In this document: positions 21,470-64,000 of the stretch, piece after piece | Numbering within the stretch: the stretch's first letter is position 1 | How the letters are laid out: every line of letters starts with the position of its first letter | Program-made: the position numbers and the translations under genes | Assembly (NCBI GenBank): GCA_016235555.1 | Contig: JACRKC010000124.1 | Location: 1 to 64,000 of the forward strand | DNA from: Verrucomicrobiota bacterium | Lineage (GTDB): Bacteria; Verrucomicrobiota; Verrucomicrobiia; Opitutales; Opitutaceae | DNA length: 64,000 bases | Direction of reading: 5' to 3' | The notes under the pieces: generated by a model | Told to the model about the DNA's origin: nothing | Databases searched by the model: none | The model's input: the letters and a program-made list of their open reading frames with translations, nothing else

Positions 21470-23125
21470 ATGTTTCTCCGTCGTTGGACCCTCCTTGTTG
21501 TCAGCCTCGCTCCGTTCGCGCTGCGCGCGGTGGAGCCTGCGCCGCCGAAACTCGCGGTGTTCATCGCGGTGGATCAGTTGCGGGCGGATTATCTGGTGCG
21601 ATTCCGGCCGTATTTCGCCGAGGGCGGGTTCAAGCGGCTGCTCGAGGGTGGCGCGGATTTCCGCAACGCGCACTACCGTCACGCGATCACGCACACCGGG
21701 CCGGGGCACGCGCTCATGTTGAGCGGCGTGTATTCGAATGTGCACGGCATCGTCGGCAACGAGTGGATCGATCGCACGACGTGGGAGAGCGTGAACTGTG
21801 TCGAGGATCCGGGCTCGCCGCTCGTGGGGATCAACCCGGCCGAACTCGGGCCGACGCAGGCCAAGGCGCCTCAGAAGACCGGACGCTCACCCCAAAACTA
21901 TCTGGCCACCACGGTCAGCGACGTGCTCAAAGCCCGCTACGGGGAGAAATGCCGGGTGTTTGCGGCTTCGGGCAAGGACCGCGGCGCGATCCTGCCGGGC
22001 GGACACAAGGCGGACGGCGCGTATTGGGACGAGAACGGGCGGTTCGTGACGTCGCGCTACTATCGGGCGGAATTGCCGGCGTGGGTGGTGGCATTCAATG
22101 CCGAGCACCCGGCGGCGGCGCACTACGGTGCGGTGTGGGACCGGTTGCTGGCCCCGGAGATTTACGAGAAAACGCAGGGGCCGGATGCCGCGCCCGGTGA
22201 ATTGGACGGCTCGGGCTACACGCCGGTGTTTCCCAAGAAGGTGACCGGCGGTTCGGCGCCGAACTCGCACGCGTTTTTCGTTGCCTATGAAAACTCGCCG
22301 TTTGCGACCGTGGCGCTGGGCGCATTTGCCGAGCGCGCGGTCGTCGAGGAAAAGCTGGGACGCCACGAAGGGACGGACCTGCTGTCGGTCAGTTTCTCGC
22401 AGGTTGATGCCATCGGCCACAACTACGGACCGGACAGCCACGAGGTGATGGATTCGGTGCTGCGGCTCGATCGCGTGCTGGCGGCACTCTTTGCGACGAT
22501 CGATCGCGAGGTGGGGCTGAAAAACTGCGTGATCGTGCTCACGGCAGATCACGGCGTGACGCCGCTGCCGGAACATGACAGCGGCGTGCCGTCAGGTCGC
22601 GTGAAGGTGACCGATCTCGACGCGGCGGTGAAGAAGGCGCTCGACGCGAAGTTCGGCGCGCTCGCGAAGGGGGAGACGTGGTTTGCGCGCGACAACGCGA
22701 CTTACCACCTCCGTCCTGCCGCGATCGCGGCGCGCGCCACGACCGCCGAGGCGGCGGCCGAGACCGTGAAACGGGCGTTGCTCGCGGTGCCGCAGATGGG
22801 GCATGCGTTTACGCGTGCGGAATTGGTCGCTGCGCCGATTGAGGGCGATTCGGTGCTGGCGATGGCGCGGAGAAGTTTCAATCCGGAGCGCCCGCGCGAT
22901 GTGCTGTTTTTTATGAAACCGAATTTCATGACCAAAGTCGCACCGGGCACGAGCCACGGTGCGCCTTACGAGGACGACACGCATGTGCCGCTGGTGTTTT
23001 GGGGTCAGGGTGTGCCCGCCGGGGTGCGCACTGAACGCGTGGGCGTGGAGTCGCTCGCGCCGACGCTCGCCGGGTTGCTGGGCGTATCGCTCCCGCCGGT
23101 GGCGAATGGGAAGAAGTTGTTCTGA
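21470..23125 (+). CDS. PafA-like alkaline phosphatase family protein
   Basis: A 551-residue exported phosphatase/phosphodiesterase-superfamily enzyme. The start is the ATG of MFLRRWTLLVVSLAPFALRA, a signal peptide; frames upstream are non-coding. FIAVDQLRADYLVRF gives the first zinc-site Asp, and HAITHTGPGHALMLSGVYSN holds the T-G-P-G-H motif with the nucleophilic Thr (Thr76) seen in PafA. SFSQVDAIGHNYGPDS and VLTADHGVTPLPEH provide the remaining His/Asp zinc ligands, and DTHVPLVFWGQG the final His. PafA enzymes hydrolyse phosphate monoesters in the periplasm and are often not phosphate-repressed. It converges with the dehydratase gene, with a 76-bp palindrome between them. Confidence 0.9.
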   Translation: MFLRRWTLLVVSLAPFALRAVEPAPPKLAVFIAVDQLRADYLVRFRPYFAEGGFKRLLEGGADFRNAHYRHAITHTGPGHALMLSGVYSNVHGIVGNEWIDRTTWESVNCVEDPGSPLVGINPAELGPTQAKAPQKTGRSPQNYLATTVSDVLKARYGEKCRVFAASGKDRGAILPGGHKADGAYWDENGRFVTSRYYRAELPAWVVAFNAEHPAAAHYGAVWDRLLAPEIYEKTQGPDAAPGELDGSGYTPVFPKKVTGGSAPNSHAFFVAYENSPFATVALGAFAERAVVEEKLGRHEGTDLLSVSFSQVDAIGHNYGPDSHEVMDSVLRLDRVLAALFATIDREVGLKNCVIVLTADHGVTPLPEHDSGVPSGRVKVTDLDAAVKKALDAKFGALAKGETWFARDNATYHLRPAAIAARATTAEAAAETVKRALLAVPQMGHAFTRAELVAAPIEGDSVLAMARRSFNPERPRDVLFFMKPNFMTKVAPGTSHGAPYEDDTHVPLVFWGQGVPAGVRTERVGVESLAPTLAGLLGVSLPPVANGKKLF

Positions 23126-23147
23126 ACAGAGCGCCAGAAGTCGCGAC

Positions 23148-23223
23148 GTAGCGGCGGGCGTCTCTGCCCGCCGAAGGATCGGGCGAACGTCCTGAACAGG
23201 CGGGCAGGGAGGCCGGCCGCTAC
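23148..23223. terminator. Palindromic repeat between convergent genes, likely bidirectional terminator
   Basis: The arms GTAGCGGCGGGCG and CCGGCCGCTAC with inner TCTCTGCCCGCC/GGCGGGCAGGGA pair over 76 bp. It lies 22 bp after the phosphatase stop and 47 bp from the stop of the opposing dehydratase gene. It belongs to the same GTAGCGGCGG...CGCCGCTAC class as several other gaps here. There is no clear T-run, so terminator function is inferred. Confidence 0.5.
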
Positions 23224-23270
23224 GAAATTGACTTCGCCTTGTGAGAAAAGGGTGCGGACGAGCCGCACCC

Positions 23271-25181
23271 CTACTTGCCCAGGCGTTTCACGATCTCGTC
23301 CACGTCGTAAACGCAGCCGCCCCATGTGCCACCGCTGGCGTTTTGCAGCGCGGCCCAGAGACGGGTGTCGGCGGGGACGCGTGGGTCGGGCGTGAGATTC
23401 GGATGCGGCGGGCGTGCGGCAAGATCGGCGGCGGAGAGCGAGACGACATCGACGGTGCCTTCGAGGCGGCGGGTGTCGACGACGAGGCGGATGGTGTCGC
23501 CGTCGCGCACGCGTGCAATCGGGCCGCCGGCCCATGCCTCGGGGCTGGCGTGGCCGACGCAGGCGCCGGTCGAGACGCCGGAGAAACGGCCGTCGGTGAT
23601 GAGGGCGATGCGCGAGCCGTTTTTGATGTGCTTGAGTGCGGAGGTGATCTGGTAGGTTTCGGGCATGCCGATGCCGGGCCCGAGGCCGATGAGCACCATC
23701 GTGTCGCCAGGCTGGACGCTGCCGGACTTGAGCGCGGCGATGGCCTGGCCCTCGGTGGTGAAGACCCGCGCCGGACCCTCGTGGCGAAACACGCCGTCGG
23801 CGCCGACGACCTCGGGTGCGATGGCGGTGCTCTTCACGAGGGCACCTTCGGGAGCGAGGTTGCCGCGGAGAAACGTGATCGTGCTGGTGAGGCCGCGCTC
23901 ACGGGCACGCGAGGGGGACATGATCACGTGGTCGGGATCGATGCCGTCGAGGGCGCGGAGTTTTTCACGGAGGCGGGTGCGGCGTTCGGATTTTTCCCAC
24001 CACGCGAGATTCTCGCCGAGCGTGCGGCCGGTGACGGTGCGGGCGTCGAGCTTGAGCAGGCCGGCGTCGCGCAGGTGGAGCATCACCTCGGGCACGCCGC
24101 CCGCGAGGAAGACCTGCACGGTGGCGTAGTGCTTCGGGCCGTTGGGCAGCACGTCGACGAGGCGCGGGACCTCGCGGTTGACGCGCGCCCAGTCGTCGAC
24201 GGTCGGGCGGCGCAGGCCGGCGGCGTGGGCGATGGCCGGCACGTGGAGCACGAGATTGGTCGAACCGCCGAACGCGGCGTGCACGACCATGGCATTGTGG
24301 ATGGAGTCCTCGGTGAGGAGGTCGCGCGTGGTCGTGTTTTGCTTTTCGAGCGCGAGCAGCGCGTGGGCCGAACGGCGGGCGAGGTCGCGCCAGATTTCGG
24401 CGCCGGAAGGACTGAGCGCGCCATGCGGGAGTGAGAGGCCGAGCGCCTCGGTGACGACCTGGCTCGTCGCGGCCGTGCCCATGAACTGGCAGCCACCGCC
24501 GGGCGAACCGCAGGCGCGGCAGCCCATGTCGGCGGCGTAGTCGAGGGTGATTTCGTCGCGGGCAAAACGGGTGGCGAGGGTTTGCACTTTTCCCGCATCC
24601 TCGGCGCCTTCGGCCAGCAGCGTGACGCCGCCGGGCACGAGCACGGTCGGGAGGTCGGGCGTGCCGGCGAGGGCCATGAGCATCGCGGGGAGGCCCTTGT
24701 CGCAGGTGGCGACGCCGAGCACGCCGCGGCGCGTGGGCAGCGAGCGGATGAGGCGGCGCAGGACGATCGCGGCATCGTTGCGGTAGGCGAGCGAGTCGAG
24801 CATGCCGGCGGTGCCGTTGGTGCGGCCGTCGCACGGATCGCTCACGTAGCCCGCGAACGGAACGGCGCGTTCGGCCGCGAACACGCGTGCCGCCTCCTCC
24901 ATGAGCAGGCCGACTTCCCAGTGGCCGGTGTGGTAGCCGAGGGCGACCGGCGTGCCATCGGGTGCACGGATGCCGCCCTGCGTGCTGAGAATGAGAAACT
25001 GTTTCCCGAGCAGCGCGGCGGGTGACCACCCCATGCCGGCGTTCTGCGTCCAGCCGAAGAGATCGCCGCTCGCGATGTTGCGGAGCTGGTTGGGCTCGAG
25101 CGGGAGCTTACCCGCGGGACCGGGCGCGGTGGTGCGGAGGTCGTAGATGGTGGCGGGGGAATCGAGGAGGGGATCGGGCAT
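23271..25181 (-). CDS. YjhG/YagF-type sugar acid dehydratase (IlvD/Edd family), probable D-xylonate dehydratase
   Basis: A 636-residue iron-sulfur dehydratase. It removes water from an aldonate to give the 2-keto-3-deoxy acid. The start [15 protein letters not shown] follows an untidy repeat-poor gap, and the 24 preceding in-frame codons are not family-like. [36 protein letters not shown] (Cys117), [12 protein letters not shown] (Cys160) and [15 protein letters not shown] (Cys231) are the cluster-binding blocks, and ITDGRFSG near the C-terminus is an IlvD/Edd signature. The GYHTGHWEV and DPCDGRT forms point to the YjhG/YagF subgroup known for D-xylonate, rather than amino-acid IlvD. With the aldehyde dehydrogenase and the FAH-family gene upstream on the same strand it fits an oxidative pentose pathway. 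Confidence 0.9.
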
Positions 25182-25227
25182 AGCAGTTTGTGACGGCCTA
25201 CGACGGCTGAGTAGCAGGATGATTGAG

Positions 25228-25722
25228 CTACTTTTTAAAAACCATGTAGCCAATTACCTCTCTCAAGGGAATGGGTCCATGATACCTGCTGTCGGCCGAG
25301 TTAGCGGTGTTGTCGCCTAATACGAATACGGCATCACGAGGAATTCTGACATCGCACGGCTTCAAATGAAGCCCGACAATGCTCAAGGGGCTTGGCAGCG
25401 TTAGCTTTCGTCCATCAACAATCACACCTTGAGGACCAATTACAATATGCTCGCCGGGAAGGCCGATGGCGCGTTTTCCGTAGATCTCTTCTGATCCTTC
25501 GAATCGACTCCGATGTATCACAATGTCGAAGCGAGCGACTTTGTTTCGATAGCTTTCAGATAGGCGGCCAATCGCTTTCTCGCCTTTCATGATTGTCGGC
25601 TGCATCGCTGCCGTAGGGAACCGATAAACCCGATACCCCGCGAAATAGAGCAGGCCGAAGCAGGTGTAGTAAGCAGCTACGAGACAAGCGACGCCGATGG
25701 TAATCCGCCTCAGGAATTTCAT
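25228..25722 (-). CDS. Signal peptidase I-like protein (S26) lacking the nucleophilic Ser
   Basis: A 164-residue S26-family protein with one N-terminal membrane segment ([20 protein letters not shown]). The box that normally reads S-M-x-P-T is TAAMQPT, with Ala39 where the nucleophilic Ser should be (codon GCG). The Lys general base is kept ([10 protein letters not shown], Lys83), as is the C-terminal box [13 protein letters not shown]. Length matches minimal bacterial signal peptidases. GC content is clearly below its neighbours. It sits inside the pentose operon, 46 bp from the dehydratase gene, and repeat copy B ends at its start codon. It may be catalytically dead, use another residue, or be an S26 branch with altered chemistry; the sequence cannot decide. 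Confidence 0.82.
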
Positions 25723-25730
25723 CTTCGTTG

Positions 25731-25893
25731 GGTCCGATACCGCGAAGCTTGCTTCGGCTTGGTTGGGTAGCGACGAGCGCCAGCGAGTCGAAGAGCGTCG
25801 GCTCGCTGGCGCTCGCCGCTACGATGCGTGGTCGAAGGTTGCATGGTGGGTTTGGTCTAATGCCTCGGGGCTTGCCCCGAGGACCTTTACTGA
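25731..25893. repeat. Bipartite intergenic hairpin element, copy B
   Basis: The left unit GTCCGATACCGCGAAGC with the CGAAGC-TT-GCTTCG hairpin begins 9 bp from the start codon of the signal-peptidase-like gene. The cargo is an inverted repeat of 21-bp arms with one mismatch (25767-25787 and 25802-25822, GTAGCGACGAGCGCCAGCG). The right unit has CCTCGGGGC-TT-GCCCCGAGG and ends in TTTAC, 3 bp from the stop codon of the upstream aldehyde dehydrogenase gene. The right hairpin differs from other copies by paired changes that keep the stem. Confidence 0.85.
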
Positions 25894-25896
25894 AGC

Positions 25897-27489
25897 TCAG
25901 GCAGAATCGCGCGAGGGCTTGCCTTCCACGAGGCGCACAAGGCCGAGCGGGTTCGCGTTTTTCACGGCGTCGGGGAGCAGCGCGTCCGGGATGCTCTGAT
26001 AGCACACGGGGCGGGCGAAGCGGAGCATCGCGGCGGTGCCGACGGACGTGTAGCGGACATCGGTCGTCGCCGGGTAGGGGCCGCCGTGGTTCATCGCGTG
26101 GCAGACTTCGACGCCGGTGGGAAAACCGTTGAGGAGCACGCGGCCGGCTCGTTGCTCGAGCGCGGCGAGCAGCGGGCGGGCGTCGGCGTGGTCGGCGGGG
26201 TCGGCTTGCACGGTGGCGGTGAGTTGGCCTTCGAGCGCGGCGGCGCATGCGGCGAACTCCGCGAGCGTGTCGGCCATGATCACGAGCGTGAAGGGGCCGA
26301 AGGCCTCGGTGGCGAGGACAGGGTGGGCGAGGAAGTGTTTGACGCTGGTGATCGCGACGCTCGGCTGGCCCTCGGTCTTGGCGGGATTGGCCGCGTGGGC
26401 GCCGGCGGCGAGCAGCGTGACGCCGGGGACGGAGGTGATTTTTTCGCGACGCTCGCTGAACGCGTCGCAGATGCTGCCGGTGAGCATGGTCGCGCTGGGG
26501 GCGGTGCGGACGAGCTCGGAGAGTTTGGCGAGAAACGCGTCGGTGTCCGGGCCGCGCAGGGTGAAGATGAGGCCGGGCTTCGTGCAGAACTGGCCGACGC
26601 CGAGCGTGAAGGAGGTGAGCAAACCCTGCGCGATGGCGGCGCCGCGGGTGCTCATGGCCGCGGGCATCAGGAAAACCGGGTTGAGGCTGCTCATCTCGGC
26701 GAAAACGGGAATCGGGTGCGGGCGTGACGCGGCGGCATCGAAGAGCGCGCGGCCGGCGGCGTGCGAGCCGGTGAAACCGACGGCGGTCGTGGCGGGATGT
26801 TTCACCATCGCGATGCCGACGGTGGCACCGCCGCCGTGAATCATCGAGAACACGCCGCCGGGCAGGCCGCACGCGGCGACGGCGCGCGTGATGGCGCCGC
26901 CGACGAGTTCGGCGGTGCCGGCGTGGGCGCGGTGGGCTTTCACCACGACGGTGCAACCGGCGGCGAAGGCCGAGGCGGTGTCGCCGCCGGCGACGGAGAA
27001 CGCCAAGGGAAAGTTGCTCGAGCCGAACACCACCACGGGTCCGAGCGGGATCAGCATGCGGCGCAGATCGGGGCGGGGGAGCGGCTGGCGGTCGGGCAGC
27101 GCGGGATCGATGCGAGCGTCGACCCACGAGCCTTCGCGCGCGACCGAGGCGAAGAGGCGGAGCTGTCCGCAGGTGCGGGCGCGCTCGCCGGTGAGACGCG
27201 GGAGCGGAAGGCCGGTCTCGGCGTGGGCGCGTTGCAGGAGGGTGTCGCCGAGGGCTTCGATCTCGGTGGCGATGGTTTCGAGGAATTTCGCGCGGTCGGC
27301 GCCGGAGAGGGTGCGGTAGATGGCGAAGGCGGCGGCCGAGGCGTCGAGCGCCGCGGAGACTTCGGCGGCGGAGGCTTCGTGGAAATCGGGCGCGAGGCGT
27401 TCGCTCGTGGCCGGGTTGATGGCGTGGAAGGTTTTTCCGCCGGTGGCGCCGTGGGCGCCGGCGAGGAGGGAGAGACCGTGGAGGGACAT
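25897..27489 (-). CDS. Aldehyde dehydrogenase, probable 2-oxoglutarate-semialdehyde dehydrogenase
   Basis: A 530-residue NAD(P)-dependent aldehyde dehydrogenase of the 2,5-dioxovalerate dehydrogenase group. It would oxidise 2-oxoglutarate semialdehyde to 2-oxoglutarate. IPLGPVVVFGSSNFPLAFSV is the cofactor-binding strand-turn, VVVKAHRAHAGTAELV the family-specific variant (His replaces the usual Pro-Ser), VGFTGSHAAGRALF the Rossmann turn, Glu265 in FAEMSSLNP the general base, and Cys302 in GVGQFCTKPG the nucleophile. The KAHRAH and EMSSLNPVF forms separate this group from betaine- or succinate-semialdehyde enzymes. It lies between the FAH-family gene and the dehydratase on the same strand, which supports the last step of a Weimberg-type pathway. 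Confidence 0.9.
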   Translation of the reverse strand: MSLHGLSLLAGAHGATGGKTFHAINPATSERLAPDFHEASAAEVSAALDASAAAFAIYRTLSGADRAKFLETIATEIEALGDTLLQRAHAETGLPLPRLTGERARTCGQLRLFASVAREGSWVDARIDPALPDRQPLPRPDLRRMLIPLGPVVVFGSSNFPLAFSVAGGDTASAFAAGCTVVVKAHRAHAGTAELVGGAITRAVAACGLPGGVFSMIHGGGATVGIAMVKHPATTAVGFTGSHAAGRALFDAAASRPHPIPVFAEMSSLNPVFLMPAAMSTRGAAIAQGLLTSFTLGVGQFCTKPGLIFTLRGPDTDAFLAKLSELVRTAPSATMLTGSICDAFSERREKITSVPGVTLLAAGAHAANPAKTEGQPSVAITSVKHFLAHPVLATEAFGPFTLVIMADTLAEFAACAAALEGQLTATVQADPADHADARPLLAALEQRAGRVLLNGFPTGVEVCHAMNHGGPYPATTDVRYTSVGTAAMLRFARPVCYQSIPDALLPDAVKNANPLGLVRLVEGKPSRDSA

Positions 27490-27505
27490 GGAGCTGGGGA
27501 GAGTT

Positions 27506-27570
27506 GTGGCGGCGGGCTGTGACCGCCGAGTTTGTAAGATAGGAATTCGGCGGTCATAGACCGCCGCTAC
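27506..27570. repeat. GTGGCGGCGG...CGCCGCTAC palindrome between pathway genes
   Basis: A 65-bp inverted repeat fills the 85-bp gap between the FAH-family and aldehyde dehydrogenase genes: GTGGCGGCGGGCTGTGACCG against CGGTCATAGACCGCCGCTAC. It shares its arms with the inner part of the 145-bp elements at 16.4 and 45.1 kb. In mRNA it would form a stable hairpin just before the dehydrogenase start. Confidence 0.7.
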
Positions 27571-27574
27571 AGAA

Positions 27575-28441
27575 TTAGTCGACTGAGTTCACGAGCGTGC
27601 CGACGGCTTCGATCGTGATGCGGATTTCGTCGCCGTGCTGGAGGGTGAACGTGTCGGGCGGGACGACGCCGACACCGGTCATGAGGTAGCAACCGTGGGG
27701 AAAACAGTTTTCGCGGAAGAGCCAGTCGGCGAGCGAAGGGAGCGGACGCTTGATCTGGCCGACGGTGGTCTGGCCGGTGAAGACGGCGGCGCCGGCGCGG
27801 TGGATGGCGATGGCGATGACCGTGTCGGAGGCGGGGAGGGTGTCGGTGACGACGAGGCAGGGACCGATGGCGGCGGCGCGGTGGTAGGATTTGGCCTGCG
27901 GGAGGTAGAGTGGATTTTCGCCCTCGATGTCGCGCGAGCTCATGTCGTTGCCGATCGTGTAGCCGAAGATTTTTCCCGCGGAGTTGATCGCGAGGGTGAG
28001 TTCGGGCTCGGGGACATTCCACTTGGAATCGGCGCGAATGCGCACAGCCCCGCCGGGGCCGACGACACGATGGGGCGTGGCCTTGAAAAAGATCTCGGGC
28101 CGCTCGGCCTCGTAGACTTTGTCGTAGAACGTGCCACCGCCGGCGTCCTTCGATTCGGCCATGCGGGCGGTTTTGCTGCGCAGGTAGGTGACGCCGGCGG
28201 CCCAGATTTCCTGCGACTGGAGCGGGGCGAGCAGGGGCCACTCGCTGGCGCTCCCTGCTTCGCCAAGGCTTCGCAGGGCAGGCGCGGCGATCGGCGTGGC
28301 GGTCGCGAGCGCGCCGCGCACGAGGACGCCGGGATCGGCGACGGCGAAAAGGGCGTCGAACGCGAGGGGCGAGGCGGGTTGGAGGAACCGGCCCGACGCT
28401 TCGAGCAGAGTGCCGGCGGAGGTGGAGTAGACGCGGATCAT
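27575..28441 (-). CDS. FAH-family protein, probable 2-keto-3-deoxy-pentonate dehydratase
   Basis: A 288-residue member of the fumarylacetoacetate hydrolase superfamily. In the oxidative pentose pathway a FAH-fold enzyme converts 2-keto-3-deoxy-D-xylonate or -arabinonate to 2-oxoglutarate semialdehyde. Readable blocks are EIWAAGVTYLRSKTARM, GGGTFYDKVYEAERPEIFFK, RVVGPGG, NVPEPELTLAINSAGKIFGY with acidic metal ligands, and IGNDMSSRDIEGENPLYLPQ; YLMTGVGVVPPDTFTLQHGD is the conserved C-terminal strand region. The placement directly upstream of a ketoglutarate-semialdehyde dehydrogenase and a xylonate-type dehydratase is the main reason for this function over a hydrolase role. Residues 55-63 are encoded by a hairpin that looks inserted. 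Confidence 0.85.
   Translation of the reverse strand: MIRVYSTSAGTLLEASGRFLQPASPLAFDALFAVADPGVLVRGALATATPIAAPALRSLGEAGSASEWPLLAPLQSQEIWAAGVTYLRSKTARMAESKDAGGGTFYDKVYEAERPEIFFKATPHRVVGPGGAVRIRADSKWNVPEPELTLAINSAGKIFGYTIGNDMSSRDIEGENPLYLPQAKSYHRAAAIGPCLVVTDTLPASDTVIAIAIHRAGAAVFTGQTTVGQIKRPLPSLADWLFRENCFPHGCYLMTGVGVVPPDTFTLQHGDEIRITIEAVGTLVNSVD
28253..28278. repeat. Hairpin inside the FAH-family gene
   Basis: CCCTGC and GCAGGG enclose TTC-GCC-AA-GGC-TTC, giving an outer 6-bp and inner 3-bp stem. It encodes residues 55-63 (ALRSLGEAG) in a weakly conserved stretch before the catalytic domain. Adjacent CACTCGCTGGCGCTC resembles the cargo of repeat copies B and D. Confidence 0.5.
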
Positions 28442-28542
28442 GCGAGGTGGGAAAGAAGATGCTGCCGCGGAATCGGGGCCAAGTCCAGCGCCCGGCGCGG
28501 TGGCGATGTCCGGACGATTGAGCGAGTCGCGGTGGTTGAGTC

Positions 28543-28577
28543 AAAAAGCCGCCGCGCCCGAAAGGGAGCGGCGGCGG
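28543..28577 (-). terminator. Rho-independent terminator after the TonB receptor gene
   Basis: Read on the minus strand, a GC-rich stem (GCGGCGGC paired with GCCGCCGC, arms at 28568-28575 and 28548-28555) is followed directly by TTTTTGAC. It starts about 22 bp after the receptor stop codon, and separates the receptor from the pentose-pathway operon, which therefore needs its own promoter in the next 100 bp. Confidence 0.8.
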
Positions 28578-28598
28578 AGGAGAGGCGGTGCAGGCGCC

Positions 28599-31598
28599 TC
28601 AGAAACTGACCGTGGTGGTGAATGAGATCTTCCGTGGGTCGAAGTAGTTGAAGCCATTGTTGACCATGCCGCCGACGAAGGGATTGGTCGCCTGGCCGAG
28701 CTCACGATAGGTCGTGTAGCTCTGGAACAGGTAGTCGTCCTTGTCGAAGACGTTGTTGATGTTCACCTGGAACCTCCAGTTGTGCTTGCCGATGCGGCGC
28801 GTGTAGGAGGCGTTCATGTCCTGGACCCAGTAGGTCGTGGCGTAGACATAGGCGAAGGAGGCCTGCTTGTTCTGGTCCGGGGTGGAGGTGGTGCCGACGG
28901 GGAGGTTGAACAGGATGTTCGGATTGACGGAGCCGACCTTGCGCCGTCCGCGTCCGCTGACGGCCCAGCCGGCCGACCAGCCGCGCAGCTTGCTTTCACG
29001 GGGGAAGGAGTAGTTGGCGTTGAGCGAGCCGGTCCATTTGTTCGTGCCGTTGTTGACGGTGCCGGGCGCGACGCCGGCGAAGTTGTTTTGCAGGTTCACA
29101 ATCTGGTTGCGGATCTGCGTCTGGTTGTCGGTCGTGAGGACGTCGCCCTTGTCGTTGCGGAGATTGTTCGCCCAATCGGTCCACTTCGGGAGAAACGCGG
29201 CGAAATACCCTTGGGTCACGGGGCGGATGGCGATGTTCTCGGTCTTGGGCAGGGCGTAGTTGGCGCTGACGCGCCAGCCCTTGTAGTTGCCGGTGACCTG
29301 GATCTCGTAGCCGTTGGTGTTGAGGGCGGCGACGTCACGCCACGATACGCCGGCGTAGTCAGGGTTGGTGTTGTAGGAATTGCCGGCGTTCTGCCAGAGG
29401 GAGTTGAAGTTGCCGGTGGGCGGGCCGTCGATGCGGTCGACCTGCTGGTTGTCGTAGTGGCGGATCTCGCCGTAGAGCGCGCCGTCGAGAAGGCTCAACC
29501 GGACGCCGTATTCGGTGCCGTTGCCGGTGGTCGCGCCGAAGGCCTGGCTGATGATGGTGCCGTCGGCGTTCCAGCCGGTGATCTTGGCGGCGCCCGAGGT
29601 GGGCGGGGCAAAATTTTCCGAGTAGTTGTAGAACAGGCCGACGCGCTGCTTCTGGTCGAGCCACACGACGGTGCCGACGTTGCCGGTGATCGGTTTGGCT
29701 TTGCCGATGTTCCACGCGCCGGGGCGGTTGCCCAGGCCCGGCACGAAGCCGCCGTAGCTTTGGAGGCCATGGGCGTCGGGGAATCCGCCGATGTTGCCCT
29801 GCTGCCGGTTCAACTGGTCGTCCCGGCGGAGTCCGAGCACGAGCGAAACCTGATCGTCGAGGAATGAGGTCGCGGCGACGCCTTGGAGATATTTGATGTC
29901 CTTGAACTCAGTCGACGCGAAGCCGGTCTGGACGTAGCCGTAGGTGAAACCTGGAGTGGGAGGCGGCAGGAACCGGCTGCCGTAGCGGCTGGGTTCATCG
30001 GCGTAGTAGCGGTAGCGGAGCGTGTTTTCCGCCGCGAGCCAGTTCTGGTTCGGGCCGTCGAGCCGCGCGGGGCTGAAGGCGCGGGCTTCGAAGCGTTCGT
30101 TGCGTTCGCCGACGATGGCGGAGAACTGGCCCTTGCCGCGGAAGGGCAGGCGGGTGTTCCAGCGCAGGAGGCCGCGCCATTCGTGGACCCAATTGTCCTG
30201 ATGGCTCTTGCCCGGAGTCGCCTCGCCGTAGGCGATGCCGACCTTGGGGTTGAGCTGGCCGTTGGGGAGGTAGCGATTGATGTCGAGCTGGAGCGAGCCG
30301 GCGCGCGCGTTGGAGCGCTCGTTGCGGTCGTTGTCGTAGTGGTAATAGGAAATCTGGCCGAAGAGGTTATCCGTGATCCGTTGGTCGAGGTAGAAGCTGT
30401 AGACCTGGTTCTTGAACCGACCGATCGTGTCGTTGGCGCCGAGGTTGAATTCCCGGCTGGGGAGGCGCGCGGCGGTCCTGACGCCGGGCAGGTCGGCGCG
30501 ACCGTCGGGCTGGATGGGGAAGCCGTGGCCGGTGGAGCGATAGGAGCGGAGGTTGGCGGCCGAGCCGCCGGTGTTGAGGAGCCCGAACTGGGCCAGGGCG
30601 GGGATGAACGTCCAGTTCTCGGCGTTGGTGCTCATGGCGGTGATACCGGCGAGACCTTGGTTGGCGGGGAGGTTCGGGTTGGTGCGATCGAAGATGAAGC
30701 CCGGTGTGTAGTAGGCCATCTGGTCGCCGTAGGTGTTGGCCCACGTCATGCGGTTTTCCCGGCCGAATTCGACTTCCGTGCGGAACTTGGTCCGCGGCGT
30801 GAACGCGTGCGCCAGCGCCACCGTGACGGCCTGGTCCTCGTTGTGCGCGTTGTCGCGCCACGCGCTGGCGACCGTGTTCTTCTGGTATTTGCCGTTGACG
30901 CGCAGCGCGGTCATGTCGCCGAGCTTTCGGTTGATATCCACGGTGGTGCGGAGCCCGCCCCAGTCATCGACGCGCGCCGTGCCGACGTAGAAGTTGCCAT
31001 CGAGGCGCGGCACCTTGGTCGCGGTGGTGGCGACGCCGCCGATCTGGCCGTCGCCGAAGAGGATCGAGTTGGGGCCGCGGGACATCTCGAAGCGTTCGGT
31101 ATTGTAGGAGTCGCTGACGCCGTAGAACAAAAAGTAGTTCCGGGTCGGGTAATTGCCGGAGGAGCCGACGCCGCGGAAGTTGAACTCGAACTCGCCGTAG
31201 GGCGTGCCCATCTGCGCGAGGTTGCCGGCGTCGACATTCATCGCGTAGCGGAACGATTCGCGCATGTCGGTGACGTTCCAATCCTCGAGGAATTCCTTGG
31301 TGAAGGCCGAGGTCGCCGAGGCGGTGAGCTTGAGCGGCATGTCGACGCGGCCGCCCGAACCGGCGTTGGCCGCCTGATAGCCGCGGTCCTGGTCCGTGCG
31401 GACTTCAAACGGCGAGAGGCGGAGCACGGTTTCCAAATTCATCCGCTCGAGTTCGTCGGGATCGAGCACGCCGTTCTTGTTGGCGTCGTATTTGGCGAGG
31501 GCGGCTGCAGCGGCGGGCGCGGCGGCCGTCTGGGCGTGTGATAACGAAACAGCTGCAACAAAAAGCGCAGCCGGCAGGGTGAAGTTACAAAGCTTCAT
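28599..31598 (-). CDS. TonB-dependent outer membrane receptor with N-terminal EF-hand
   Basis: A 999-residue outer membrane receptor, likely for carbohydrate fragments. The start MKLCNFTLPAALFVAAVSLS is a signal peptide; the longer frame upstream is not used. Residues 38-49, DANKNGVLDPDE, are a canonical EF-hand calcium loop placed between the signal peptide and the plug. LSPFEVRTDQDRGYQAANAG is the TonB-box-like and plug entry region of the verrucomicrobial type, followed by plug motifs MRESFRYAMNVDAG, NFRGVGSSG and RGPNSILFGDGQIGGV. The remaining 800 residues have barrel-strand character and end in ISFTTTVSF with terminal Phe for BAM recognition. It lies downstream of a PL26-like lyase gene, so the ligand may be a pectin fragment; this is inference. 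Confidence 0.92.
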   Translation of the reverse strand: MKLCNFTLPAALFVAAVSLSHAQTAAAPAAAAALAKYDANKNGVLDPDELERMNLETVLRLSPFEVRTDQDRGYQAANAGSGGRVDMPLKLTASATSAFTKEFLEDWNVTDMRESFRYAMNVDAGNLAQMGTPYGEFEFNFRGVGSSGNYPTRNYFLFYGVSDSYNTERFEMSRGPNSILFGDGQIGGVATTATKVPRLDGNFYVGTARVDDWGGLRTTVDINRKLGDMTALRVNGKYQKNTVASAWRDNAHNEDQAVTVALAHAFTPRTKFRTEVEFGRENRMTWANTYGDQMAYYTPGFIFDRTNPNLPANQGLAGITAMSTNAENWTFIPALAQFGLLNTGGSAANLRSYRSTGHGFPIQPDGRADLPGVRTAARLPSREFNLGANDTIGRFKNQVYSFYLDQRITDNLFGQISYYHYDNDRNERSNARAGSLQLDINRYLPNGQLNPKVGIAYGEATPGKSHQDNWVHEWRGLLRWNTRLPFRGKGQFSAIVGERNERFEARAFSPARLDGPNQNWLAAENTLRYRYYADEPSRYGSRFLPPPTPGFTYGYVQTGFASTEFKDIKYLQGVAATSFLDDQVSLVLGLRRDDQLNRQQGNIGGFPDAHGLQSYGGFVPGLGNRPGAWNIGKAKPITGNVGTVVWLDQKQRVGLFYNYSENFAPPTSGAAKITGWNADGTIISQAFGATTGNGTEYGVRLSLLDGALYGEIRHYDNQQVDRIDGPPTGNFNSLWQNAGNSYNTNPDYAGVSWRDVAALNTNGYEIQVTGNYKGWRVSANYALPKTENIAIRPVTQGYFAAFLPKWTDWANNLRNDKGDVLTTDNQTQIRNQIVNLQNNFAGVAPGTVNNGTNKWTGSLNANYSFPRESKLRGWSAGWAVSGRGRRKVGSVNPNILFNLPVGTTSTPDQNKQASFAYVYATTYWVQDMNASYTRRIGKHNWRFQVNINNVFDKDDYLFQSYTTYRELGQATNPFVGGMVNNGFNYFDPRKISFTTTVSF

Positions 31599-31768
31599 GT
31601 TGGGGCGGGGAGTTAAGGTTGGACACGACCGGGGGCTGAGCCGTGGACAAACGGGATGGGGTGGTGGGGAGGGTGGCAGAAAGCCGCGCGAAGCTGGTCG
31701 CGAGGTCAACGACGGAACGAACAACCACCCGCGACCGGCGTCGCAAAAAGTTCGTCAGTCTAACAATT

Positions 31769-61733: not shown

Positions 61734-63218
61734 CTACCGGGCGACGGCGGCGGGGCGCAGGTGCGGCGGTTTTTCGCGGACCTCGCGGAGCGGCTGCGTG
61801 GGATCATGGTGGGGATTGGGTCCGGGGAACTCGGCACCGACGCTTTGCAGCCAGTGGCGCAAGGTGGCTTGGAGGGTGCGGGCGCGATCCGGCTCGCGCT
61901 CGGCGAGGTCGGTCGTCTCGGCGAGATCGGAGCGGAGATGGAAGAGTTCGAGGCGTGCGCCGGGGCGGTAGCGGTTGGCGGCGTCGAACGAGTCGCCGAA
62001 GTAATCGATCAACTTCCAATCGCCCTCGCGGATGACGGCGCACGGCGTGGCGGCCCAGCGCAAATCGTAGAGCGGCAGGTGCCAGAAGAGAGCGCGTGAC
62101 GGGAGCGATCCGCCGCGCAGGAGCGGGCCGAGGTCGACGCCATCGAGGTGGGCCTCGCGCGGCGCCGCGGCGCCGGCGGCGGCGAGAAGCGTCGGGGCCC
62201 AATCCACGACGTGGACAGGCGTGGCGACGGTGCGGCCCGGGGCGACGACGCCGGGCCAGCGCACGAGACACGGCACGCGGATGCCGCCTTCGTAGGCGGA
62301 GCCCTTGCCGGCGCGGAGCGGGGCGTTGCTGAACTGTGCTTGTTCGACGCTGAGTTGCGTCGCGGTGCCGGGACCTTGGGTGAAGGGTTTGACGTCGAGC
62401 CCTTGGTAGATGCCGCCGTTGTCGCTGAGAAAAACGACGAAGGTGCGTTCGCGCTGACCGAGTTCGTCGAGCGCGGCGAGGAGGCGGCCGACGGAGTGGT
62501 CGAGGTGCTCGATCGCGGCGAGGTAGGTCGCGTTGTGCAGGCCGGTGGCGGGGGCGCCGCGGGCGCGGTATTTTTCGACGAGGGGCGCGGGCGCCGCGAC
62601 GGTGTTGTGGATCGTGTGGTGCGCGAGGTAGAAGAACCACGGGCGCGAGCGTTCGCGACGGATGAACTCGATCGCCTGCGCGGTGAGATAATCGACGTGT
62701 TTGTCGCCTTCGTTTTGCGAGCCGGGGCCGGGCGGGGCGGAGAAATCGAAGCCGTAATGTGCGGCGGCCTCGGGCTTGAGGGAGACGTAGTTGCCGTCGG
62801 CGCTGGTGGTGAGGTGCCACTTGCCGGCCATGCCGGTGGCGTAGCCGGCGGCGCGGAGCGCTTTCGGAAACGTGAAGGCGTCGCGCGAAAGTTGTTCGGT
62901 GAACGGCGGCTCGCGCACGGGCGCCCACGGCGCGCCATACCACGGGATGACGTGCCACAGGCCGTTGCGCGCGGTGTGCTGGCCGGTGAGCAGCGCGGCG
63001 CGCGTGGGTGTGCACTGCGGCATCACGTAGGCGTCGGTGAAGCGCGCGCCCTCGGCGGCGAGCCGGTCGAGGTGCGGCGTCGCGACGAGTTTGTTGCCGT
63101 AGCAGGAGAGCGTGGGCCAACCTTGGTCGTCGGTGAGGATGAAGAGGAGGTTGGGGCGGCCGGCGGTGGCGGCGCCGGCCGGGGCGCACATCAGCAACGC
63201 GAGGAGCAGCCGCTTCAT
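61734..63218 (-). CDS. Secreted arylsulfatase-like sulfatase
   Basis: A 494-residue exported sulfatase starting MKRLLLALLMCAPAGAATAG. Asp30-Asp31 (FILTDDQGWPTLSCYG) are calcium ligands, CTPTR at 69-73 the formylglycine motif with Thr in the fourth place, GMAGKWHLTTS the Lys/His site, and FLSDNGGIYQG the second metal motif. It resembles the arylsulfatase A/B-like group, with substrate unknown. Repeat copy D begins 8 bp upstream of its start codon, and a partial Gfo/Idh/MocA gene follows beyond that on the same strand. Confidence 0.93.
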   Translation of the reverse strand: MKRLLLALLMCAPAGAATAGRPNLLFILTDDQGWPTLSCYGNKLVATPHLDRLAAEGARFTDAYVMPQCTPTRAALLTGQHTARNGLWHVIPWYGAPWAPVREPPFTEQLSRDAFTFPKALRAAGYATGMAGKWHLTTSADGNYVSLKPEAAAHYGFDFSAPPGPGSQNEGDKHVDYLTAQAIEFIRRERSRPWFFYLAHHTIHNTVAAPAPLVEKYRARGAPATGLHNATYLAAIEHLDHSVGRLLAALDELGQRERTFVVFLSDNGGIYQGLDVKPFTQGPGTATQLSVEQAQFSNAPLRAGKGSAYEGGIRVPCLVRWPGVVAPGRTVATPVHVVDWAPTLLAAAGAAAPREAHLDGVDLGPLLRGGSLPSRALFWHLPLYDLRWAATPCAVIREGDWKLIDYFGDSFDAANRYRPGARLELFHLRSDLAETTDLAEREPDRARTLQATLRHWLQSVGAEFPGPNPHHDPTQPLREVREKPPHLRPAAVAR

Positions 63219-63225
63219 TCTCTTT

Positions 63226-63385
63226 GGGTCCGATACCCCGAAGCTTGCTCCGGCTTGGTCGGGTAGCGACGAGCGCCAGCGAGTCGAAGAGCGTCGGCTC
63301 GCTGGCGCTCGCCGCTACGATGAGTGGTCGAAGGTTGCATGGTGGGATTGGTCAAATACCCCGGAGCTTGCTCCGGGAATGTTTA
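63226..63385. repeat. Bipartite intergenic hairpin element, copy D
   Basis: The left unit GTCCGATACCCCGAAGC begins 8 bp from the sulfatase start. The cargo and the stretch to the right unit (GTAGCGACGAGCGCCAGCG, then GTGGTCGAAGGTTGCATGG) are almost identical to copy B, 37.5 kb away. The right unit CCCGGAGC-TT-GCTCCGGG ends in TTTAC, and this end overlaps the TAA stop of the neighbouring gene. Confidence 0.85.
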
Positions 63386-64000
63386 CATCGCCGGGAGTTT
63401 CCAGTCGCCGCGCAGGGGGCGCGGCTGGAGCAGGGCGTTGGCGGCGTCGTCGTTGAGGAAGCGCTCGGCTTGCGGATCCCAGCGGAGAGCGCGGCCCTGT
63501 TTCACGGCGATGAGGCCGAGCTGGCAGAGGGTGTCGGAGCGCAGCGCGGTCTCGACGTCGCAGATGGCGCGGCGTTTCTGGCGGATGGCGTCGAGGAAAT
63601 TGCGCGTGTGATGCACGCTGATCGGGAGCGTGACCGGCATGGTGTCGACTTTGTTCTGCGGGTCGCGGAGCACGGCTTCGTCGGAGGCGGTGATGACGCC
63701 GCGGCGGACATGCACCCAGCCGGACTCGCCGAGGAACTTGATGCCGTGGTCGAAACCCGGCGCGCCCTCGTGGGCGAAGACGAGCGGGGCGCGGCCGGCG
63801 TATTCGTAGCGCACCTGCCATCGCTGGATGGCGTCGTGGTCGCCGGCGGCGGCGAATTCGCCGGAGCCGGTGATGCGGGTCGGTCCCGTGGCATCGGCGC
63901 CGTTGCCCCACTGCGCGATGTCGAGGTGGTGGATGCCCCAGCAGGAAATCATGCCGAGGGAGAACGCGGCGATGTTCTCGTGGTTGTCGCGCTTGAGTTT
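63383..64000 (-). CDS. Gfo/Idh/MocA family oxidoreductase, C-terminal part (N-terminus beyond right edge)
   Basis: The frame is open to the window edge, giving 205 residues of the C-terminal domain. NHENIAAFSLGMISCWGIHH followed by LDIAQWG is the conserved block seen in Bacteroidetes/Verrucomicrobiota-type Gfo/Idh/MocA proteins with an exported or Tat N-terminus, and TGPTRITGSGEFAAAG follows. The last third (HHTRNFLDAIRQKRRAICDV and RALRWDPQAERFLNDDAANA) matches the usual end of this subgroup. The Rossmann half is missing, so its cofactor motif cannot be checked. Its stop codon lies inside the right end of repeat copy D. Confidence 0.88.
   Translation of the reverse strand, partial: KLKRDNHENIAAFSLGMISCWGIHHLDIAQWGNGADATGPTRITGSGEFAAAGDHDAIQRWQVRYEYAGRAPLVFAHEGAPGFDHGIKFLGESGWVHVRRGVITASDEAVLRDPQNKVDTMPVTLPISVHHTRNFLDAIRQKRRAICDVETALRSDTLCQLGLIAVKQGRALRWDPQAERFLNDDAANALLQPRPLRGDWKLPAM

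What the first reader, a model, noticed from the sequence alone, without database searches (positions are those of the whole stretch)
25228..25722. Signal peptidase I-like protein with Ala in place of the nucleophilic Ser
The S-M-x-P-T box reads TAAMQPT, while the Lys base ([10 protein letters not shown]) and the GDN...NSADSR box are intact. The DNA codon GCG is one base from TCG. It lies inside a pentose-catabolic operon and has lower GC than its neighbours. It could be a pseudoenzyme, a chaperone-like decoy, or an S26 branch with changed chemistry. The adjacent Thr37 could conceivably act instead.
Basis: partly seen in the sequence, partly recalled or inferred. Interest (0 to 1): 0.6.

Follow-up and report, generated by a model that had tools for sequence, protein, structure and literature searches.

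The report
Signal peptidase lookalike missing its serine
A gene sitting alone inside a sugar-acid operon of an Opitutaceae-like bacterium encodes a membrane protein built like the enzyme that clips signal peptides off exported proteins, but with the cutting serine replaced by alanine; it is probably a recently acquired, inactive copy, of a kind already known from other bacteria.

Summary
Window 25228-25722 (-) encodes a 164-aa type I signal peptidase (S26A): Pfam PF10502 at 85 bits, one N-terminal membrane helix and a confident SPase fold (pLDDT 92; Z 17.9 to SpsB and SipA). Residue 39, the nucleophile position, is Ala (GCG); Lys83 and GDN..NSADSR are intact. No serine lies in residues 1-54. 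Thr37 is the ordinary residue there (71 of 104 dyad-intact relatives), not a likely stand-in.

The genome has two other S26 genes with intact dyads. The window gene looks foreign: GC 51% against about 71% in its neighbours; no room for it upstream of the dehydratase in 7 of 7 relatives read; nothing above 33% identity over most of the protein in 252 family genomes. No 'Ala clade' was found: its weakly supported sisters have Ser, and the other two Ala proteins have lost Lys too. It keeps 17 of 20 other conserved positions, so the loss is recent or the fold is still used.

Most likely a dead, laterally acquired accessory SPase that at most binds signal peptides. Precedents: SipA (S. pyogenes), SpsA (S. 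aureus). New member of a known kind, modest interest.

The parts
25228..25722 (-). S26A signal peptidase-like protein, 164 aa, nucleophile Ser replaced by Ala39
25606..25608 (-). codon GCG of Ala39, at the nucleophile position
25612..25614 (-). codon ACG of Thr37, the usual residue at this position in dyad-intact relatives (71 of 104)
25474..25476 (-). codon AAA of Lys83, general-base position, intact
25285..25317 (-). [11 protein letters not shown] box (residues 136-146), intact
25639..25719 (-). single N-terminal helix, residues 2-28 of the model, read as the membrane anchor
25718..25891 (-). dispersed ~175-bp repeat filling nearly the whole gap between the ALDH stop and the S26 start; its edge contains the S26 ATG
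25767..25822 (.). palindrome with 25-nt arms inside the repeat
23271..25181 (-). downstream neighbour: YjhG/YagF-family D-xylonate dehydratase (start taken at the ATG at 25181)
25897..27489 (-). upstream neighbour: aldehyde dehydrogenase
27575..28441 (-). FAH-family protein of the same operon

Best explanation
This is a type I signal peptidase (S26A, single membrane anchor) that lost its catalytic serine to alanine. It was most likely acquired from outside the lineage and now lies between two genes of a xylonate-type sugar-acid operon. Shown: family, predicted fold, Ala at the nucleophile column, intact Lys and GDN boxes, no alternative Ser in residues 1-54, odd base composition, no copy at this site in the relatives read, and two other S26 genes with intact dyads in the genome. 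Inferred: it cannot cleave signal peptides; if made, it sits in the membrane with its SPase domain outside and at most binds the cleavage region of preproteins without cutting; the loss is recent, and the gene is either drifting towards a pseudogene or kept for weak binding.
For: Family and fold. Nucleophile column Ser in 110 of 121 relatives, window Ala. No Ser in residues 1-54. Own genome has three S26 genes; the other two read SGSMQPT/VKR and TNSMWPT/IKR. Foreign: GC 0.509 against 0.714/0.706; the gap upstream of the dehydratase is too short for the gene (about 200 bp or less) in 7 of 7 relatives read, and ALDH is the next gene in 5 of those 7; best match over most of the protein 33% in 252 family genomes; single-protein scans of genome contigs and viral contigs found no relative, and alignment scans found relatives of at most 35-39% over 110 residues or more. 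Recent or constrained: 17 of 20 otherwise conserved positions kept, against a mean of 18.1 in 70 dyad-intact relatives.
Against: With no close ortholog there is no dN/dS and no population sample, so recent inactivation rests on motif retention alone, and that measure does not separate cleanly: two dyad-broken relatives (L104, L120) also keep 17 of 20, and dyad-intact ones range from 13 to 20. An open frame of 164 aa, in front of which a genome repeat places a start codon, could equally mean a used gene. Only the 30 best of the S26 matches in 334 of 372 genomes of the order were fetched, so further Ala forms may exist. Activity was not measured.
Confidence: 0.6

Rival explanations
1. A selected, working pseudoenzyme: the Ser-less SPase domain binds signal peptides or exported proteins as a chaperone, decoy or regulator, in the way proposed for SipA in pilus assembly.
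For: The fold is predicted with high confidence and matches SipA (4n31, Z 17.9, 124 residues, rmsd 1.7) as well as SpsB (4wvi, Z 17.9); 17 of 20 conserved positions kept; SipA lacks Ser and Lys yet is essential for pilus polymerisation (PMC4049620, passages); dyad-broken S26 proteins recur, 17 of 121 relatives, one of them (L129) doubtfully aligned.
Against: No ortholog with the same Ala-Lys pair was found (0 of 121 relatives), so nothing shows that the state is maintained. Its direct neighbours are metabolic genes. Even in SipA, a change meant to block the peptide cleft did not affect polymerisation (passage), so cleft binding is not proven there either.
Confidence: 0.27
2. The Ala codon is a base error of the draft assembly or a rare variant, and the real gene has Ser (TCG).
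For: GCG is one base from TCG; the rest looks like an intact SPase; the assembly is a 140-contig draft.
Against: Assembly base errors are rare (general knowledge), so hitting this one codon is unlikely a priori, whereas lost nucleophiles are not rare among the relatives gathered: 11 of 121 lack Ser. No reads are available here.
Confidence: 0.08
3. An active peptidase with a different nucleophile, for example Thr37, Thr43 or an activated water.
For: Lys83 is intact, and some Spirochaetaceae relatives carry Thr at the nucleophile column with Lys intact (L100, L111, L113, L116).
Against: Thr37 is the commonest residue of that column in dyad-intact enzymes (71 of 104), where the Ser two places on is the nucleophile. 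No Ser occurs before residue 55. The Spirochaetaceae proteins have Thr at the nucleophile column itself, which the window protein does not.
Confidence: 0.03

Closest known systems
Active type I signal peptidases of family S26A (E. coli LepB, S. aureus SpsB; PDB 1b12, 4wvi)
   Same: Fold, N-terminal anchor, Lys general base, GDN..DSR box, Thr/Ser two residues before the nucleophile.
   Different: Nucleophile Ser is Ala; 16-32% identity to the solved ones, by aligner and entry; the genome has two other S26 genes with intact dyads.
SipA of Streptococcus pyogenes (PDB 4n31, 4k8w; PMC4049620)
   Same: SPase fold without the catalytic Ser; top Foldseek match and tied best by VIA-align.
   Different: SipA has also lost Lys (Asp and Gly, passages read) and is a pilus assembly factor; the window protein keeps Lys and lies in a sugar-acid operon. 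16-19% identity.
SpsA of Staphylococcus aureus (review PMC12445088, passages)
   Same: An inactive SPase paralogue in a genome with a working one.
   Different: SpsA lacks two catalytic residues; the window protein lacks one. Not compared by sequence here.
Other Ser-less S26 proteins of the same order (L009, L130: A-M-x-P-T with Lys to Phe)
   Same: Ala at the nucleophile column; L009 is from the same order, L130's record is titled Opitutaceae.
   Different: Lys lost too; not grouped with the window protein in the tree; L009 has a lipobox-like stretch.

Membership tests
Peptidase S26 / type I signal peptidase (by homology) | Significant match to the family profile over most of its length | tested here: met
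   PF10502 85.3 bits (cut-off 22.9), profile 9-165 of 168; TIGR02227 81.5 bits (cut-off 47)
Peptidase S26 / type I signal peptidase (by homology) | SPase I fold with membrane anchor | tested here: met
   Predicted model: pLDDT 92, helix 2-28, Z 17.9 to SpsB 4wvi and SipA 4n31
Catalytically competent type I signal peptidase | Nucleophilic Ser in S-M-x-P | tested here: not met
   Ala39 in the column that is Ser in 110 of 121 relatives
Catalytically competent type I signal peptidase | Lys general base in KR-x-x-G-x-P | tested here: met
   Lys83
Catalytically competent type I signal peptidase | GDN..(N)S.DSR box | tested here: met
   [11 protein letters not shown]
Catalytically competent type I signal peptidase | Cleaves signal peptides | not testable with these tools
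   needs a bench assay
Inactive SPase homologues (SipA/SpsA kind) | SPase fold, at least one dyad residue missing | tested here: met
Inactive SPase homologues (SipA/SpsA kind) | A non-catalytic function | not testable with these tools
   no functional data for this gene
SipA (pilus assembly factor) | Encoded in a pilus gene cluster | tested here: not met
   direct neighbours are ALDH and xylonate dehydratase; only the genes around 22000-29000 were looked at

The most novel reading that the evidence does not exclude
A working pseudo-signal-peptidase in a diderm bacterium: a Ser-to-Ala SPase, natural equivalent of the laboratory trap mutant, that holds signal peptides without cutting them and tunes export of sugar-acid uptake proteins; one of several independent Ser-less S26 lineages (Opitutales, Acidobacteria, Spirochaetaceae), part of which have become lipoproteins.
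Probability: 0.15. Interest if true: 0.6.

Novelty: new member of a known kind. Interest (0 to 1): 0.3.

Why it matters
If it is real and expressed, it is a natural Ser-to-Ala signal peptidase, the kind of mutation made to trap substrates, and would show whether a cell tolerates or uses a non-cutting SPase. The wider survey (biased) suggests that loss of the S26 dyad has happened several times in bacteria outside the Gram-positive cases met in the papers read, some in proteins that look like lipoproteins, so 'signal peptidase I' annotations should be checked for the dyad.

Tried and rejected
Orthologs: single-protein pattern scans of genome contigs and viral contigs gave no relative; alignment scans gave 61 loci in genome contigs (best over most of the protein 33-34%; up to 39% over about 110 residues, 44% over 90) and 5 in viral contigs (26-45%; 31% over the full length for L151). 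tblastn against plasmids (97 records, 15 listed) and phages (14 records, all listed) gave matches under 60% identity; of the 15 plasmid rows, 12 are annotated as signal or leader peptidase, one has no feature and two have no annotation; I opened none. Searches of 95 relatives and 252 family genomes gave nothing above 33% over most of the protein, though short C-terminal stretches of other S26 genes reach 54%.

An Ala clade: not found. The tree used 88 of the 122 aligned rows; 34 rows of the long Opitutales-type S26 clade were dropped, and columns 37, 39 and 83 were masked. Before alignment I had dropped six rows (L069 own copy; L074, L077, L049 duplicates; L008 and L057 without the box), the own copies L003/L004, and loci without a tblastn hit (L007 among them). 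The five viral relatives (L150-L154), fetched later, are not in the counts; by eye all five have Ser and Lys. The window joins L063/L064 at SH-aLRT 93, not starred, with a long-branch warning, so its place is unsure.

Shifted nucleophile: rejected (no Ser in residues 1-54). Lipoprotein: rejected for the window protein (no lipobox by the pattern used). Known RNA in the repeat: no Rfam match at gathering scores in 25600-26000.

Literature: (SpsA/SpsB, nothing). Of 31 papers with 'signal peptidase' and 'Verrucomicrobia' only 8 were listed. No title that I saw in these listings was about a Ser-less signal peptidase of Verrucomicrobiota; subscription papers are not held. PMC13104630 was opened for SpsA; its matches are the abbreviation of another signal peptide, not this protein.

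The relatives are not an unbiased sample: they were chosen by similarity and, by patterns around M-x-P, KR-x-x-G-x-P and the GD box, so '17 of 121' is not a frequency in nature. Of the S26 matches in 334 of 372 genomes of the order only the 30 best loci were fetched.

Full report
What was checked. The reading frame at 25228-25722 (-) is intact and encodes 164 residues. It matches Pfam Peptidase_S26 (85.3 bits) and NCBIfam signal peptidase I (81.5 bits, cut-off 47). By sequence its best solved relative is B. anthracis SPase I 4nv4 (2e-8). An AlphaFold2 model on a 35-row alignment has mean pLDDT 92 with one N-terminal helix, residues 2-28. Foldseek ranks SipA 4n31 first and SpsB next; VIA-align gives Z 17.9 for both SpsB 4wvi (132 residues, rmsd 2.3) and SipA 4n31 (124 residues, rmsd 1.7), and about 15 for E. 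coli LepB. The distance between Lys83 and residue 39 in the model was not measured.

The nucleophile. In an alignment of the protein with 121 relatives, its Ala39 stands in the nucleophile column (Ser 110, Thr 5, Ala 2, Gly 2, Asp 1, Asn 1) and Lys83 in the base column (Lys 111 of 121); 104 of 121 have the full Ser-Lys dyad. No Ser occurs before residue 55, so the nucleophile has not slid. Thr37 is the commonest residue of its column in the dyad-intact set (Thr 71, Ser 19, Gly 13, Val 1 of 104), so it marks an ordinary SPase loop, not a replacement nucleophile. None of the 121 relatives has the window's Ala-Lys pair; the two Ala rows (L009, L130) have Phe for Lys.

Does the genome need it? The genome has three S26 genes. 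The other two read SGSMQPT with VKRVIG (L001) and TNSMWPT with IKRLIG (L002), both with the dyad.

Origin and context. The gene has GC 0.509 and GC3 0.552, against 0.714/0.889 for the aldehyde dehydrogenase before it and 0.706/0.878 for the xylonate dehydratase after it. Of 57 genomes searched, 19 including the own one have the dehydratase at E 1e-200 or better; I read the upstream flank in 7 of the 18 relatives. In all 7 the gap before the dehydratase is too short for the S26 gene (about 200 bp in G003, a few dozen bp or less in the other six). The next gene is the aldehyde dehydrogenase in 5 (G025, G003, G007, G029, G013) and the FAH-family gene in 2 (G001, G020). The best match over most of the protein is 33% in 252 family genomes. 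So the gene is best read as foreign DNA placed into an old operon. That f1 is Opitutaceae is inferred: genome contigs records titled 'Opitutaceae bacterium' (L074, L077) carry S26 proteins of the same length, boxes and match as those of G439 and G434.

Tree. On 88 of the 122 rows, with columns 37, 39 and 83 masked, the window protein joins the Ser-bearing proteins L063/L064 of its own family (SH-aLRT 93, not starred; long-branch warning), apart from L009 and L130. The Ala is thus best read as a separate, late loss, although the position is unsure.

Recent loss or constraint. At the 20 positions, other than the dyad, that are at least 80% conserved in 70 dyad-intact relatives, the window keeps 17; those 70 keep 18.1 on average (range 13-20); the 17 dyad-broken relatives keep 10-17, two of them (L104, L120) also 17. 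A long neutral drift after the loss would have eroded these positions. So either the loss is recent or the fold is still under selection. The data cannot choose; I weigh the first somewhat higher because no relative found shares the state.

Expression signals. Nearly the whole gap between the aldehyde dehydrogenase and the S26 start is one copy (25718-25891) of a dispersed repeat of this genome, whose edge holds the S26 ATG. This neither proves nor excludes expression.

Comparison with the known. SipA of S. pyogenes has an SPase fold, lacks Ser and Lys (Asp and Gly), shows no peptidase activity, keeps the peptide-binding cleft, and is essential for pilus polymerisation; changes at the Asp, and one meant to block the cleft, did not affect polymerisation (PMC4049620, passages read). 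SpsA of S. aureus is called inactive and dispensable, lacking two catalytic residues (PMC12445088, passages read). The window protein is of the same kind in having an SPase fold without its nucleophile, and differs in keeping Lys, in its host and in its gene neighbourhood. It belongs to family S26 by homology; it fails the test for a catalytically competent SPase.

Verdict. A real feature, correctly read. It is most likely a dead, recently acquired accessory signal peptidase. Cleavage, binding and expression are all untested.

Noticed in passing
window 25718-25891, 63214-63386, 2458-2495 (partial); L160-L179: A dispersed ~175-bp repeat with a strong palindrome and GC-rich hairpin-like stretches. 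In the own genome 40 of 286 candidates were scored and 40 places matched along the repeat (plus 8 reverse matches of the palindrome); no match in 11 relatives at E 1e-12, in four of which only 40 of 47-75 candidates were scored. Of 23 copies read, the S26 one included, 22 have an ATG at the downstream edge (typically GACCCAACGAGAATGAA); from it the frame stays open 40 codons or more in 18 of 22, against 0 of 22 (closed at once by the TGA in ATGA) and 13 of 22 in the other frames. A stop at the upstream edge could be read in 16 copies (TAA 14, TGA 2), with 13 of 16 open 40 codons or more before it, against 9 and 8 in the other frames. So the repeat may carry start and stop codons of its neighbours; some of the following frames look by eye like signal peptides. 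No Rfam match.
   Followed up: partly
L005, L009, L010, L078, L120, L124: S26 proteins with a broken Ser-Lys dyad often have a lipobox-like stretch before the domain: 6 of 17 against 4 of 104 dyad-intact relatives by a loose pattern (Fisher p 5e-4, rows not independent; by eye only L083 of the four looks like a lipoprotein). Possible recurrent 'lipoprotein pseudo-SPases'.
   Followed up: partly
L100, L111, L113, L116, L118, L125, L115 (Spirochaetaceae / Treponema / Spirochaetes MAGs): S26 proteins with Thr (4) or Gly (2) at the nucleophile column, Lys intact and SDD..NTNDSR for GDN; L115 of the same clade has Ser. In 7 of 7 of these genomes another S26 match lies within about 1 kb on the same contig, and a further one elsewhere. 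Could be an active-inactive pair or a Thr peptidase; the partners' nucleophiles were not settled.
   Followed up: partly
L078 (Acidobacteria MAG, 2426-2965 +): S26 protein with Asn at the nucleophile column, Lys intact, lipobox-like SGGC; its genome has four S26 matches in all.
   Followed up: no
window 28599-31724 (-): A large ORF that by eye resembles an outer-membrane receptor, with a short EF-hand-like stretch (KYDANKNGVLDPDEL) near its start; read, no family search made.
   Followed up: no
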